DNA from: a virus
Direction: 5' to 3' (one strand)
IMG/VR virus record: IMGVR_UViG_3300040856_002958
Coordinates: 1 to 22,885 of that record
DNA: 22,885 nt
Shown here in pieces: positions 18,334 through 22,885 of the stretch (position 1 is its first letter; every line of letters starts with the position of its first letter). Made by a program: the position numbers and the translations under genes. The notes below the pieces were generated by a model, which was not told where the DNA came from, ran no database searches, and worked only from the letters and a program-made list of their open reading frames with translations.

Positions 18334-20095
18334 GGAAATAACGGTCAAGAACTTCATGAGCGTGGGCAACCAGGCACAGGCCATCGACTTCTCCAACAAA
18401 AGCCTGGTGCTGGTCATAGGTGAGAACATGGACCTAGGAGGCGACGACGCAGGAGCAAGGAATGGTACGGGTAAGACAACCATAATCAACGCACTGAGTT
18501 ACGTGTTCTACGGAGAGGCGCTAACAAACATCAGGAGAGACAACCTGGTCAACAAGACCAACGAGAAGGGCATGTTGGTCTCTGTCAAGTTCATCAAGAA
18601 CGGCGTGACCTACACCATAGAGCGTGGACGTAAACCACAGATATTCAGATTCTACGCCAACGACATAGAACAGAAGGCGGACAGCAACGAGGCACAAGGT
18701 GAGAACAGGGAGACGCAGGTGGAGATCAACAAATTATTGGGCATGACCCACGCCATGTTCAAAAACATAGTGGCCCTGAACACCTACACACAACCTTTCC
18801 TGAGCACAAAGCAGGCGGAACAGAGAGAGATCATAGAACAGTTGTTGGGTATCACTTTACTGTCGCAGAAAGCGGATCTACTGCGTGAGAAACAGAAGGC
18901 AACGAAACAGTTGCTGACGGAAGAGAAGATGAGATTAGATGCCAAGGTGTCGTCCAACGAGAAGATACAGGAGTCCATAGAGAGCCTCAAGATTAGATCC
19001 GCCGCATGGACAAAACAGAAGGCACAGGACATCGAGAGTTTCCGAGAGGCAATCGCGGAACTGGAGAAGGTGGACAGCGAGATCGAGATCGAGAAACACA
19101 AGAAACTGCAGAAACACAACGAGGCACAGACAGCGTTGCGCAACCTCATGAAGGAGAAGGCCTACCACGAGGATTCCTTGACCAAGGCGGAATCAACCGT
19201 AGAGAAGACCGAGAAGGACCTGGAGTTCGCGGAGGCGGCCAAGTGTCCCACCTGCGAACAGGCATTACACGACGACAAGCACGAACATCTCGTTGGTAAA
19301 CTGAAGACGAACCTGACAGAGAACAAAGAATACGCAGACAAACTGCGAAATGATCTTGCCCAGATACAACAGGGCATAGACGACATAGGAGATTTGGGAC
19401 AGGTTCCTGACACCTACTATGACACCATAGACGAGGCCTACAACCACAAGGGCACATTACAAGACCTCAAACGACAGTTGGAACACACCGAGAAGAAGGA
19501 AGACACCTACGCGGAACAGATCGCAGAACTGGAGAGCAAGGCCATACAGGAGGTGGATTACGAGAAGGCCAACGAACTGGAAGACCTACACAGGCACCAG
19601 GACTTCCTTTACAAATTACTGACAGCGAAAGACAGTTTCATAAGGACCAGGATCATAGAACAGAACCTGACCTATCTGAACCAGAGATTGGCGTTCTTCC
19701 TGGGCAAGGTCAAGCTACCACACACTGTGACATTCCAAGCGGATCTCAGTGTGAGGATCGAAGAACTGGGCAGGGAACTGGATTTTGACAACTTGAGCAG
19801 AGGGGAAAGAAACAGACTGATACTCAGCATGAGTTGGGCGTTCAGGGACGTGTGGGAAAGTCTTTATCAACAGATCAACCTGTTGTTCATAGACGAGCTG
19901 GTGGATGCTGGCATGGACATATCCGGTGTCGAGAGCTCCATGGCGGTGCTGAAGGACATGGCGAGGACGCAACAGAAAAACATATTCCTGATATCACACA
20001 AGGACGAATTGGTCAGCAGGGTCAACTCCGTGCTGAAAGTGGTCAAAGAGAATGGATTCACTAACTACGCAAATGACGTTGACATCATTGTTTAA
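18320..20095 (+). CDS. 46: gp46-like recombination endonuclease subunit (Rad50/SbcC family ATPase)
   Basis: 591-aa ABC/SMC-type ATPase partner of gp47; it bridges DNA ends and controls the nuclease with ATP. Domains in order: N-terminal lobe with Walker A (RNGTGKTT, K52); long coiled coil (about 180-480) rich in E, K and Q; zinc hook CPTC at C309/C312 in the middle; C-terminal lobe with the signature LSRGER (S493-E496) and Walker B LLFIDE (D525, E526). T4 gp46 is 560 aa. The start is a TTG at 18320, chosen because of the GGAGGAGGA upstream. The stop lies 11 nt inside the convergent gene on the other strand. Confidence 0.95.
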   Translation: MLTIKEITVKNFMSVGNQAQAIDFSNKSLVLVIGENMDLGGDDAGARNGTGKTTIINALSYVFYGEALTNIRRDNLVNKTNEKGMLVSVKFIKNGVTYTIERGRKPQIFRFYANDIEQKADSNEAQGENRETQVEINKLLGMTHAMFKNIVALNTYTQPFLSTKQAEQREIIEQLLGITLLSQKADLLREKQKATKQLLTEEKMRLDAKVSSNEKIQESIESLKIRSAAWTKQKAQDIESFREAIAELEKVDSEIEIEKHKKLQKHNEAQTALRNLMKEKAYHEDSLTKAESTVEKTEKDLEFAEAAKCPTCEQALHDDKHEHLVGKLKTNLTENKEYADKLRNDLAQIQQGIDDIGDLGQVPDTYYDTIDEAYNHKGTLQDLKRQLEHTEKKEDTYAEQIAELESKAIQEVDYEKANELEDLHRHQDFLYKLLTAKDSFIRTRIIEQNLTYLNQRLAFFLGKVKLPHTVTFQADLSVRIEELGRELDFDNLSRGERNRLILSMSWAFRDVWESLYQQINLLFIDELVDAGMDISGVESSMAVLKDMARTQQKNIFLISHKDELVSRVNSVLKVVKENGFTNYANDVDIIV

Positions 20096-20909
20096 TTTGT
20101 CCTAGTATCTTACCAATGGAATATAGTTTGTCATCGCTGTCCTTTAAAACATAACAGAACATACTATGTCGCAGATCTAGTTTATCACAAATTTTTTGTA
20201 TCTGTTTGGTATATTTTTGCCATCCATAATCCCTATCGAGGTTATCCATCATGAAGGCCCCGCAGGCTGTAGTCAATTCGTTGTACTTTTTTTGCGTACT
20301 GATCAAAGTGCAGGAGTCCATAGTACGTTGTCGTGACCAGCGTAGCCCAATCCTGTTCCAGGTGAAATTATACTTCGACATACTCATAGCAAATGACTTG
20401 ATATTAGGATGATCAAAATCAAAATTGAATCCCTTTGCGGCCGTTACCCATGCGCAATCAATATGTATGTCGATGTCCTTTTGTTCGCATTCCCTCAACA
20501 CTTCTTGCCATTCCGGCCTATCTCCATAAAAGTAGTTAGGAAGAGACACAATCAAGGGTATTCCCTCTTTTAATTTTCCCGGTGATGTTGGGTGTTTTCC
20601 CATAATCGAATAATAGGCATACTCTTTTGGTAATATCTGCACGTTCCACTTGTGTTTACTGACCAAACTTTCGATAAAATGTGTACACCCCATTATCACA
20701 TCCACGTTTGTAAATTTTGACCAACCTTGTAAATCGTTTACTTTCGTTGATTTGAACCAGGCACTGGCCTTGTCTATGAATTCGTTGTGTTCGATAGGTG
20801 TTTGAGGATCATTGTACCATTTTTCTTTGAGCGCTGTCAAATACGAGTCCTGCAAGGGAACCAATGTTTTATGCAAATCTGATATTTTTAGATTATCTAT
20901 ATCTAACAT
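20085..20909 (-). CDS. short fold-type-I PLP enzyme, aminotransferase-like
   Basis: 274-aa protein with the landmarks of class I/II aminotransferases. VDVIMGCTHFIESL (about 69-82) corresponds to the cofactor-phosphate loop (TxGxxxAI). IVSLPNYFYGDRPEW (120-134) corresponds to the NPxNPTG region. D151 in DIHIDCAW is the candidate pyridine-N Asp. SMSK (176-179) with K179 is the candidate Schiff-base lysine, followed by R186 in NRIGLRW. The usual length is 350-400 aa, so the C-terminal small domain is largely missing and the N-terminus differs. The product could be a minimal aminotransferase, another PLP enzyme, or a non-catalytic relative. Its start lies inside the upstream oxygenase gene (17-nt overlap, AGGAG 8 nt before ATG), so the two are co-translated. 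Its 3' end overlaps gp46 convergently. Confidence 0.55.
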   Translation of the reverse strand: MLDIDNLKISDLHKTLVPLQDSYLTALKEKWYNDPQTPIEHNEFIDKASAWFKSTKVNDLQGWSKFTNVDVIMGCTHFIESLVSKHKWNVQILPKEYAYYSIMGKHPTSPGKLKEGIPLIVSLPNYFYGDRPEWQEVLRECEQKDIDIHIDCAWVTAAKGFNFDFDHPNIKSFAMSMSKYNFTWNRIGLRWSRQRTMDSCTLISTQKKYNELTTACGAFMMDNLDRDYGWQKYTKQIQKICDKLDLRHSMFCYVLKDSDDKLYSIGKILGQIKQ

Positions 20910-21447
20910 AAACGCTTCTCCTATCCCCGTGCGTGGATTTGCTGGTAGTTCCGTGTAAACTGACGTTGTTGTTTAAAAGTGCGTATCCTGAATTCAACTT
21001 ATAATCGAAACTTTTAATAATGTTGTTTTCGCTGTCATACAGAGACGTCCCTACGTTGTTGTCACCTAAATAGATTTGTATGGCAAGTTTAATACTGGGA
21101 TCATCTGTGTGTGGTGGCAAATAATAACCGGCACTGTCTTTCCATATGTCAACGCTGTCCAACAACAAAGTTGTTTTGAATTTTTTTTCCAGAGCAGTGA
21201 TGATGGCCGTACGCATGAAAAAAATTTTCAATACCTTCATAATCTCACTTTCGTATAAAATTCTCTGCCTCGGCAAGTGTGCCTGCCGTTCGAGATCAAC
21301 ATGGTCAACATTCCTCAAATGCATAAGTTGATTTGGCACAGACTTACCAAAAAAATTTGCGTATTCTTGGTAAATTATGCCATTTAAATTTACCAAAGGT
21401 GCTTTTTCTATTGACCGGACCACATCTTGTGTGCTTAAATTAAACAT
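20893..21447 (-). CDS. 2-oxoglutarate/Fe(II)-dependent oxygenase
   Basis: 184-aa prolyl-4-hydroxylase-like oxygenase. The facial triad is visible: H113-x-D115 in PPHTDDP, distal H165 in SLHGTT, and R176/R177 in GDRRSVYVRY as the 2-oxoglutarate-binding Arg, 11-12 residues after the distal His. The preceding DSVDIWKDSAGYYL strand is also typical. Enzymes of this type are common in marine T4-like phages, but their substrates (protein, amino acid or nucleic acid) are mostly unknown. It lies directly upstream of, and overlaps, the PLP-type gene. The ATG sits in CATATG with no clear Shine-Dalgarno. A TATAAT-like box is only about 10 nt upstream of the ATG. Confidence 0.85.
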   Translation of the reverse strand: MFNLSTQDVVRSIEKAPLVNLNGIIYQEYANFFGKSVPNQLMHLRNVDHVDLERQAHLPRQRILYESEIMKVLKIFFMRTAIITALEKKFKTTLLLDSVDIWKDSAGYYLPPHTDDPSIKLAIQIYLGDNNVGTSLYDSENNIIKSFDYKLNSGYALLNNNVSLHGTTSKSTHGDRRSVYVRYR

Positions 21448-21493: not shown

Positions 21494-21688
21494 ATGTCAA
21501 ATGAAACACATGAACAGATCATGACCGAGATACAGACTTACTCAGAAGAGAACGGTAAGTTCGTAGACAAGGGTGTGAAAGCATCTGCGACAAGGGCCAG
21601 GAAGGCACTTGCCAATCTCGCCAAATTGATCAAAGCAAGAAGAAAAGAGATTCAAGAAGTCAAAAACGCGGCCAAAGAGTCAGCGTAA
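21494..21688 (+). CDS. small Lys-rich histone H1/Hc1-like protein
   Basis: 64-aa basic protein. The second half (KFVDKGVKASATRARKALAN, then LAKLIKARRKEIQEVKNAAK) has the KA-T-RARKAL...K..RKEIQ pattern seen in bacterial Hc1-type histone-like proteins, and is predicted to be helical and positively charged. Likely role: non-specific DNA binding or nucleoid/genome compaction; this is inference. It has a strong RBS (AAGGAAGGA, 8 nt spacer) and its own downstream terminator. It is therefore a monocistronic unit on the strand opposite the genes on both sides. It could also be a small RNA-polymerase or nucleoid modulator. Confidence 0.65.
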   Translation: MSNETHEQIMTEIQTYSEENGKFVDKGVKASATRARKALANLAKLIKARRKEIQEVKNAAKESA

Positions 21689-21713
21689 TCGATCATTGGA
21701 TTTTGCAAAACCC

Positions 21714-21749
21714 AAAACCCCCGGCTGGCACCAGTTGGGGGTTTTTTTT
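21714..21749. terminator. strong intrinsic terminator, probably bidirectional
   Basis: AAAACCCCCGGCTG, loop GCAC, CAGTTGGGGG, then eight T: a 10-14 bp hairpin with two G-U pairs and a U tract, ending the H1-like gene 26 nt after its stop. In the minus direction the same hairpin is followed by TTTTGGGTTTT and lies at the very end of the amidinotransferase gene, whose TAA (21748-21750) overlaps the T run. It therefore probably ends both convergent transcripts. Confidence 0.88.
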
Positions 21750-22587
21750 AGAAATAATTTTCAAGTACGCCTTCCCTGTACAAGTCTTGCGTCATACAAT
21801 GAATGCCATTGTCCCAGAACGCTTTATGACGCAATTCACACACTACCGGTTCGATGCCGTGTTTTTGTAAAAAATCAAACATCACATCACTTACATCGGT
21901 CGTGAAGCAAGTGTTTTCATCTATGGACAGTATGTTTACGTCATAGTTGCTTTCTTCATGATTGCCTCCCCACATGTGCTTTATAGGCGCATATTTCCTA
22001 ACAGGGTCAAGATAACATATATCCCATCCTGGATATATCTCTTCCAATTCAGGTAAATCACGACTGGCAACTATGACACCGGGTTTCAATATACTGTACA
22101 CCCCGTCCATGTGCCAACCGTATCTAGTAATAGAAACCCTGTACTCATTTTCATGTAACCATTTTTTTATGGATCTTTCACTTTCAGGATGGACGTGATT
22201 GCTGATATCCCAATGCAGATGATTGCCACACCTTACCATGTTGCCACTGGATATGTCATTGTCCAGATACCATTTAATCCGACCCTTATCGATCTTAGAA
22301 AGTATGTCCTTGTAGCCAGCTATCACCTTCCCGACCAAGAGATTTTCACCGATTGCTACGAAATAATCCCTGGGTGATATGGGCGGGCGAGAATCTTTTT
22401 TTTCCACGTTTGGTCTGTAACAAATCACTCCCGCTGACGTGAGTTTATCAACTAGCGCATCTAGGTCTTCATTGGTGTCTTCCATGATCTTTTTCAATGA
22501 ATCACCGACATCCTTTGGGTCATGAGCCCTACCAACAATGCAGTGCTTCAAAGGATGGAATGTTGCGAAGCCTTTAACCGGTATCAT
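21748..22587 (-). CDS. amidinotransferase-family enzyme (glycine/arginine amidinotransferase-like)
   Basis: 279-aa member of the amidinotransferase/guanidino-modifying superfamily. Visible motifs: SPRD (71-74) near the N-terminal third; WHMDG with H159 and D161, the catalytic His motif; and GIHCMTQDLYREG with C264, the nucleophilic Cys that forms the amidino-enzyme intermediate. In known members (AGAT, StrB) arginine donates its amidino group to an amine such as glycine or an aminocyclitol; related enzymes hydrolyse arginine. The acceptor here cannot be told. It is shorter than human AGAT (423 aa) but close to bacterial and hydrolase-type members. Start ATG 22587 overlaps the upstream gene stop (ATGA), with AAAGGA upstream. 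The stop overlaps the shared terminator. Confidence 0.8.
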   Translation of the reverse strand: MIPVKGFATFHPLKHCIVGRAHDPKDVGDSLKKIMEDTNEDLDALVDKLTSAGVICYRPNVEKKDSRPPISPRDYFVAIGENLLVGKVIAGYKDILSKIDKGRIKWYLDNDISSGNMVRCGNHLHWDISNHVHPESERSIKKWLHENEYRVSITRYGWHMDGVYSILKPGVIVASRDLPELEEIYPGWDICYLDPVRKYAPIKHMWGGNHEESNYDVNILSIDENTCFTTDVSDVMFDFLQKHGIEPVVCELRHKAFWDNGIHCMTQDLYREGVLENYF

Positions 22588-22880
22588 TTTTTTATTATTC
22601 CTTTACCATGAACACGCACACGGATATGTCCGTTGTAGTAATCGTTCGATTCTAAAACTTTCCTAGCGAACTGTTCCCGGGCTTCGATGTATGACAGTTC
22701 TGCCTTGGAGTAGCAATAGAACAGTATCTCCCTTGTGAATTTTTCTTTGCCCAATTTCATGACATCCGCTGTGAGTTCGTCACTAGAACCATAATAGTCC
22801 TGCCAGTCCGAATCCACTTTGTACCTACGCTTGTTCTTGCGTCCTTTCAGCGGTGGTCTGCTCCTTTTGAATCTCGCCAA
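22584..22880 (-). CDS. SegE/GIY-YIG-like protein, possibly 5'-partial
   Basis: 98 aa from a TTG at 22880; the frame stays open to the right edge, so the true start may lie outside. The segment DWQDYYGSSDELTADVMKLG KEKFTREILFYCYSKAEL followed by SYIEAREQF has the pattern (YYGSS..L...I..xGKENF.R.IL..C.S..EL...E) of T4 Seg-type GIY-YIG endonucleases and their degenerate phage relatives. The first GIY motif is not evident in the visible part, so catalysis is doubtful. The N-terminus is very basic (RFKRSRPPLKGRKNKRRYK), fitting nucleic-acid binding. It is translationally coupled to the amidinotransferase by ATGA. Confidence 0.5.
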   Translation of the reverse strand: MARFKRSRPPLKGRKNKRRYKVDSDWQDYYGSSDELTADVMKLGKEKFTREILFYCYSKAELSYIEAREQFARKVLESNDYYNGHIRVRVHGKGIIKK

Positions 22881-22885
22881 TTTTT

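What the first reader, a model, noticed from the sequence alone, without database searches (positions are those of the whole stretch)
20085..20909. Unusually short PLP aminotransferase-like protein retaining the lysine site
At 274 aa it is about 100 residues short of usual fold-type-I aminotransferases, yet the SxSK lysine motif, the candidate Asp151 and the phosphate-loop-like segment remain. The K-to-R distance (K179 to R186) is close to, but shorter than, that of standard aminotransferases. It may be a minimal enzyme or a repurposed cofactor-binding protein. No phage role for such a protein is known to me.
Basis: partly seen in the sequence, partly recalled or inferred. Interest (0 to 1): 0.6.

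Follow-up and report, generated by a model that had tools for sequence, protein, structure and literature searches.

The report
Pocket-sized vitamin-B6 enzyme in phages
A gene in an uncultured T4-like phage encodes an unusually small but apparently complete vitamin-B6 (PLP) enzyme, part of a large phage-only family that keeps company with an iron oxygenase and an arginine amidinotransferase, which suggests that these phages carry a small pathway making an amine- or guanidine-bearing compound whose identity is still unknown.

Summary
The minus-strand ORF at 20085-20909 encodes a 274-aa fold-type-I PLP protein. AlphaFold2 gives pLDDT 91, with VIA-align Z up to 16.3 to solved PLP enzymes. By sequence, the family matches a 368-aa bacterial fold-type-I-like protein (hhalign E 8.5e-7). 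It is not a broken gene: 78 distinct full-length phage relatives measure 263-287 aa. Asp151, Trp154, Ser176 and Lys179 are invariant, Arg186 is present in 77 of 78, and dN/dS is about 0.15 against the nearest relative. The missing residues lie mainly between the phosphate loop and the Asp, and after the Lys. No conserved arginine remains where ordinary transaminases hold the substrate carboxylate. New here is the setting. Of 42 distinct relatives with good flanks, 39 lie beside a 2OG-Fe(II) oxygenase, an AGAT-type amidinotransferase and/or a CBM60-like protein, in two phage backgrounds and shuffled gene orders. In the window the gene overlaps the oxygenase gene by 17 nt. Best reading: a minimal, probably active PLP enzyme in a phage pathway for an amino/guanidino product; substrate and product are unknown. 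Campylobacter phages carry an unrelated 262-aa PLP protein near an amidinotransferase and radical-SAM genes. Real; a new variant of a known fold; moderately interesting.

The parts
20085..20909 (-). Minimal fold-type-I PLP protein, 274 aa (G74-C75-T76 phosphate loop, D151, W154, S176, K179, R186)
20893..21447 (-). 2OG-Fe(II) oxygenase-like protein, 184 aa; invariant H113-x-D115 ... H165 ... R176; its 3' end overlaps the PLP gene's start by 17 nt
   Evidence: neighbour of the PLP gene in 34 of 42 distinct loci
21748..22587 (-). Amidinotransferase of the arginine:glycine amidinotransferase (AGAT) superfamily, 279 aa; invariant H159-x-D161, W258-D259-x-G261-x-H263-C264
   Evidence: E 1.5e-25 to AGAT, 2jdx; neighbour in 20 of 42 distinct loci
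21494..21688 (+). Histone H1/Hc1-like 64-aa protein lying between the amidinotransferase and oxygenase genes on the other strand; context only, role in the module unknown
   Evidence: PF07432, E 3.7e-12; cluster c9 in 36 loci
21710..21745 (-). Terminator-like hairpin (C5/G5 stem with A and T tracts) between the amidinotransferase and the Hc1-like gene; weak evidence
   Evidence: -17.3 kcal/mol, z -1.36; not listed by the consensus scan

Best explanation
The gene encodes a size-reduced but catalytically competent fold-type-I PLP enzyme. SHOWN (computationally): fold-type-I fold; conserved cofactor site (Lys179 for the internal aldimine, Asp151 for the pyridine nitrogen, Trp154 in the place of AAT Tyr225, Gly74/Thr76 + Ser176 + Arg186 for the phosphate); purifying selection; persistent linkage to a 2OG-Fe(II) oxygenase and an AGAT-type amidinotransferase. 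INFERRED: the three enzymes act in one phage-encoded pathway. The PLP enzyme does amine chemistry (most likely amino transfer, possibly a beta/gamma-elimination-type cyclisation or a decarboxylation) on a substrate that the oxygenase hydroxylates and the amidinotransferase guanidinylates using host arginine. Because the usual carboxylate-clamping Arg is not conserved, the substrate is probably not held like a free alpha-amino acid in AAT. The CBM60-like protein that accompanies the second lineage hints that the final acceptor may be a glycan.
For: Fold: AF2 pLDDT 91.3, pTM 0.89; Foldseek PDB E 1.6e-8 (1lc8) with 880 matches at E<=0.001; VIA Z 16.3 over 254 residues (4dgt), RohP/MppP/Plu4 among the tied top rows. 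Cofactor site: 78/78 D151, W154, S176, K179; 77/78 R186; hhalign puts D151/K179/R186 on AspC D211/K246/R254, though with a weak score. Sequence homology: family HMM vs a 368-aa bacterial protein E 1.9e-6 in one genome, hhalign probability 91.5, E 8.5e-7 over 210 columns with D, K, R in register, 24.0 bits vs best of 200 shuffles 6.9 bits. Selection: dN/dS about 0.15. Module: 34/42 with the 2OG gene, 20/42 with AGAT, 19/42 with c5, 39/42 with at least one, in two genome backgrounds (gp46/gp47 region vs primase/helicase region) with shuffled order and orientation. Partners: AGAT E 1.5e-25; oxygenase HxD..H..R invariant and Pfam 2OG E 9e-4; c5 CBM60 fold Z 11.4 against 6.0 for the next unrelated row.
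Against: No biochemistry. Direct hhalign to AspC, HisC and MalY is not significant. The window protein is far below Pfam cut-offs (Pyridoxal_deC 12.5 vs 27 bits). The dimer, which normally completes a fold-type-I active site, was not modelled. The amidinotransferase is missing from about half of the loci within 3.5 kb, so it is not an obligate neighbour. In the window the amidinotransferase gene is separated from the oxygenase-PLP pair by an opposite-strand gene.
Confidence: 0.6

Rival explanations
1. Aminosugar/aminocyclitol route: the PLP enzyme transfers an amino group to an oxidised sugar or cyclitol, the amidinotransferase guanidinylates it (as StrB1 does in streptomycin biosynthesis), and the product decorates a phage or host glycan.
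For: The AGAT-like profile also matches StrB1 (1bwd, E 4.8e-16); c5 has a CBM60 (calcium-dependent carbohydrate-binding) fold; in cyanophage S-SCSM2R the closest isolate amidinotransferase (29% identity) sits next to 2OG oxygenases, KdsA, KdsB and a glycosyltransferase.
Against: Human AGAT scores better than StrB1 (1.5e-25); no glycosyltransferase is a conserved neighbour of the PLP gene; c5 was not found next to the window's gene and may bind something else.
Confidence: 0.3
2. Modified arginine/amino acid: as in the VioC-VioD, OrfP-OrfR, MppP or GntC systems, the oxygenase hydroxylates arginine (or a relative) and the PLP enzyme cyclises or eliminates; the amidinotransferase makes or consumes the guanidine group. 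The product could be a free compound or a protein modification.
For: Same combination of chemistries (2OG oxygenase + fold-type-I PLP enzyme on guanidine amino acids; PMC10367076); RohP and MppP are among the tied top structural matches.
Against: All top rows are tied, so the match is not subfamily-specific; GntC, VioD and AspC keep the carboxylate-binding Arg (GntC R346), which this family lacks.
Confidence: 0.25
3. Hypermodification of phage DNA (or tRNA): the enzymes tailor a base.
For: Fold-type-I PLP enzymes and 2OG oxygenases have been proposed or shown in phage base hypermodification (own knowledge, not tested here); in the B lineage the genes lie near primase and helicase.
Against: No base-modifying gene (hydroxymethylase, base glycosyltransferase) is a conserved neighbour within about 6 kb.
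Confidence: 0.12
4. A catalytically dead PLP-binding or PLP-fold protein reused as a regulator or scaffold.
For: Small-domain reduction and loss of the substrate Arg would fit.
Against: Lys179, Asp151, Ser176 and Arg186 would be free to drift but are essentially invariant across relatives down to 28% identity; the gene travels with enzyme genes.
Confidence: 0.08

Closest known systems
Fold-type-I PLP enzymes (aspartate aminotransferase superfamily: AspC, HisC, MalY, CobD)
   Same: Overall fold and the order phosphate loop - Asp - Lys - Arg
   Different: 82-122 residues shorter: phosphate loop to Asp is 77 residues (AspC 109, HisC 101), Lys to C-terminus 95 (150, 142), K-R spacing 7 instead of 8; no conserved carboxylate-binding Arg
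368-aa protein of an unnamed bacterial genome (L224:1240-2343:-, drawn from the class of a Pelagibacter MAG)
   Same: Closest full-size relative found by sequence; D, K and R in register
   Different: Full length, with an insertion exactly where the phage family is short and about 90 extra residues at the C-terminus; its own function is unknown
262-aa 'aminotransferase class I and II' of Campylobacter phages (vB_CjeM_WX1, CP20, CPt10, CJLB-12/13; P0002)
   Same: Phage-encoded, equally short, PF00155 over its cut-off, DxxY / SK / LRxG motifs, within 4 kb of an amidinotransferase and of radical-SAM genes
   Different: No detectable sequence relationship to the window family (hhalign E 0.56); different length distribution; radical-SAM rather than 2OG partners
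Guanidino amino acid pathways VioC/VioD, OrfP/OrfR, MppP/Q, GntC
   Same: 2OG oxygenase and/or fold-type-I PLP enzyme acting on arginine-derived substrates (PMC10367076)
   Different: Those PLP enzymes are full-size and keep the carboxylate Arg; bacterial secondary metabolism, not phage
L-arginine:glycine amidinotransferase family (AGAT, SxtG, HsvA, StrB1), for the neighbour gene
   Same: Profile match E 1.5e-25 with catalytic His-x-Asp and Cys motifs
   Different: 279 aa in the window, against 383-423 aa for the AGAT, SxtG and HsvA chains

Membership tests
Fold-type-I PLP enzymes | Aspartate-aminotransferase-type fold | tested here: met
   AF2 pLDDT 91, pTM 0.89; Foldseek E 1.6e-8; VIA Z 16.3, 254 aligned residues, rmsd 4.0
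Fold-type-I PLP enzymes | Lysine for the internal aldimine | tested here: met
   K179 in 78/78; aligned to AspC K246 and to the Lys of L224
Fold-type-I PLP enzymes | Asp bonding the pyridine nitrogen | tested here: met
   D151 in 78/78, aligned to AspC D211
Fold-type-I PLP enzymes | Phosphate cup: G-x-T loop, Ser three before the Lys, Arg 7-8 after it | tested here: met
   G74 78/78, T76 77/78, S176 78/78, R186 77/78 (Lys in L085)
Fold-type-I PLP enzymes | PLP actually bound as an aldimine | not testable with these tools
   needs a UV-visible spectrum or a crystal structure
Fold-type-I PLP enzymes | Homodimer with a shared active site | not tested
   only a monomer could be predicted here
Canonical aminotransferase class I/II (PF00155) | Pfam PF00155 above its curated cut-off | tested here: not met
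   No PF00155 match for the window protein or any of the 26 members at E<=1
Canonical aminotransferase class I/II (PF00155) | C-terminal Arg binding the substrate alpha-carboxylate (AAT Arg386) | tested here: not met
   No conserved Arg after position 226; the last 48 residues have no column with mostly Arg
Group II PLP decarboxylases (PF00282) | PF00282 above cut-off | tested here: not met
   12.5 bits vs cut-off 27; best member only E 0.0013
2OG-Fe(II) oxygenases (neighbour 20893-21447) | HxD...H iron triad and downstream Arg | tested here: met
   H113, D115, H165, R176 invariant in 25 sequences; Pfam 2OG families match some members at best E 9e-4
AGAT-type amidinotransferases (neighbour 21748-22587) | Profile similarity to solved AGAT plus catalytic His and Cys motifs | tested here: met
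   E 1.5e-25 to 2jdx; H159-x-D161 and C264 invariant

The most novel reading that the evidence does not exclude
Two or more lineages of uncultured T4-like phages carry a mobile pathway cassette (minimal PLP enzyme + 2OG oxygenase + AGAT amidinotransferase, often with a CBM60-like protein) that makes a new guanidino/amino modification of a polymer, probably a glycan, during infection; Campylobacter phages evolved a parallel cassette from another small PLP protein and radical-SAM enzymes.
Probability: 0.3. Interest if true: 0.75.

Novelty: new variant of a known kind. Interest (0 to 1): 0.5.

Why it matters
It shows how far the fold-type-I PLP fold can be cut down (about 270 aa) while keeping its cofactor site, in a family with at least 78 distinct full-length members that was not found in the 50,697 isolate phage records searched. 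The linkage to an oxygenase and an amidinotransferase turns three 'hypothetical' phage genes into one testable biochemical pathway, and a similar combination in isolated Campylobacter phages suggests that guanidine chemistry is a recurring, unexplained phage trait.

Tried and rejected
Truncated or broken gene: rejected, the length is conserved at 263-287 aa in 78 relatives. Chance motif: rejected by invariance, fold and selection. Reverse-strand artefact: the + strand reading is full of stops. Relation to the Campylobacter phage 262-aa protein: sought, not detected (hhalign E 0.56; 0.1 bits), so the likeness is treated as convergent or too remote to see. Direct sequence match to solved structures: none for the single sequence or the profile; direct hhalign to AspC/HisC/MalY not significant on its own. 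PHROGs: no usable family. Defence-system models (PADLOC): no match for the PLP, oxygenase or amidinotransferase proteins. Isolate phages: no relative by tblastn with four different members. Subfamily from structure: all top rows tie, so no subfamily is claimed. L024 was suspected of recoded stop codons because of its short neighbouring ORFs; longest open frames do not support that. Literature: one search on phage, hypermodified, pyridoxal, 2-oxoglutarate and amidinotransferase returned a single unrelated paper, one on a minimal fold-type-I PLP protein in phage likewise, and one on phage amidinotransferase and 2OG genes gave general phage papers, none of them read here.

Full report
1. The observation. 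The ORF 20085-20909 is on the minus strand, 274 aa. It lies in a T4-like phage record (22,885 bases, IMG/VR) with gp46/gp47/gp55 homologues on the plus strand and large virion proteins on the minus strand.

2. It is a fold-type-I PLP protein. AlphaFold2 on 26 aligned relatives gives pLDDT 91.3 and pTM 0.89. Foldseek finds 880 PDB chains at E<=0.001, led by CobD (1lc8, 1.6e-8). VIA-align gives Z 16.3 (4dgt), with many tied aminotransferases, C-S lyases and the arginine oxidases RohP and MppP; ties mean that no subfamily can be named. Sequence evidence was weak at first (Pyridoxal_deC E 0.059; best member 0.0013), but the family profile hits one 368-aa bacterial protein with E 1.9e-6 among 289 genomes. 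hhalign aligns 210 columns with E 8.5e-7 and puts D151, K179 and R186 on the Asp, Lys and Arg of that protein. In a shuffled control it scores 24.0 bits against at most 6.9.

3. It is a family, not an accident. Scans of IMG/VR confirmed 36, 265 and 288 loci in three differently designed scans (lists overlap). 78 distinct full-length proteins measure 263-287 aa. D151, W154, S176 and K179 are invariant, G74 too; R186 is 77/78. Identity to the window protein falls to 28%. dN/dS against the nearest relative is about 0.15. Only two genome contigs in GTDB matched, in a Pelagibacter MAG and a Pacearchaeota MAG; the first has the same gene order as the phage loci, so these are most likely binned phage contigs (inference). 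No isolate phage has it. A BFVD model of an uncultured Caudovirales phage (A0A6J5KXV0, TM 0.88, 32% identity) is a further member, named only as uncharacterized.

4. What is missing. Compared with AspC and HisC, the phosphate-loop-to-Asp stretch is 77 residues instead of 109 and 101, and Lys-to-end is 95 instead of 150 and 142. The insertion in L224 falls between Y100 and L113 of the window protein, which fits loss of the edge strand and helix of the large domain (inference). No Arg is conserved after position 226, so the usual carboxylate-binding Arg (AAT R386, GntC R346) has no counterpart by conservation. R190 (77/78) and the R/K at 193 and 195 are candidates for another anionic group (inference).

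5. The surroundings. The start codon overlaps the end of a 184-aa gene by 17 nt. That protein is a 2OG-Fe(II) oxygenase by its invariant H-x-D...H...R and weak Pfam matches (best 9e-4). Further upstream lies an amidinotransferase whose profile matches AGAT at 1.5e-25. Of 42 distinct PLP genes with at least 3 kb on both sides, 34 have the oxygenase, 20 the amidinotransferase, 19 the 161-aa c5 protein, and 39 at least one of them. The tree shows two main clades that follow two genome contexts, next to gp46 or near primase and helicase, and inside both the order and orientation of the partners vary; staying together through rearrangement argues for a shared function. c5 folds like a CBM60 carbohydrate-binding module (Z 11.4; next 6.0).

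6. Precedents. Campylobacter phages carry a 262-aa protein annotated as aminotransferase class I/II (PF00155 over its cut-off) within 4 kb of an amidinotransferase and several radical-SAM genes; these interchangeable clusters were described in 2010 (PMC2853527), the passages read there do not mention the PLP protein. It is not detectably related to the window family. Cyanophage S-SCSM2R has an amidinotransferase flanked by 2OG oxygenases and Kdo genes. Bacterial pathways that pair 2OG oxygenases with fold-type-I PLP enzymes on arginine are well known (PMC10367076), and phages do encode PLP enzymes of another fold (PMC9992855).

7. Judgement. Shown: fold, cofactor-site conservation, selection, gene linkage. 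Inferred: catalysis, a shared pathway, an amino or guanidino product. Unknown: substrate, product, target. The gene should be called a minimal fold-type-I PLP enzyme, not an aminotransferase.

Noticed in passing
window 21748-22587 (-): Phage AGAT-type amidinotransferase; relatives in cyanophage S-SCSM2R and Campylobacter phages.
   Followed up: partly
window 21494-21688 (+): 64-aa histone H1/Hc1-like protein (PF07432 E 3.7e-12) conserved in 36 loci, mostly just upstream of the oxygenase gene and on the opposite strand.
   Followed up: no
window 22584-22883 (-): SegE-like GIY-YIG protein (PF19835 E 5e-22); its PHROG (447) is labelled 'NAD synthetase', which looks like a wrong label.
   Followed up: no
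L067 and L086 (one 196,581-base contig): Two PLP paralogues in one phage contig; the second (287 aa, 28% identity to the window protein) lies away from the module and keeps the Lys and Asp.
   Followed up: partly
L063:544-1026 (+) and relatives: c5, a 161-aa protein with a CBM60-like fold directly upstream of the PLP gene in the second lineage.
   Followed up: partly
L224:350-3386 (-): Bacterial three-gene overlapping operon around the 368-aa full-size relative; the 296-aa neighbour has no Pfam match.
   Followed up: no
L033:3144-4346 (+): Radical SAM/SPASM-like protein near the PLP gene in a lineage without the gp46 or primase context.
   Followed up: no
window 20085-20095: The PLP gene and the gp46-like gene converge and overlap by 11 nt.
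   Followed up: no
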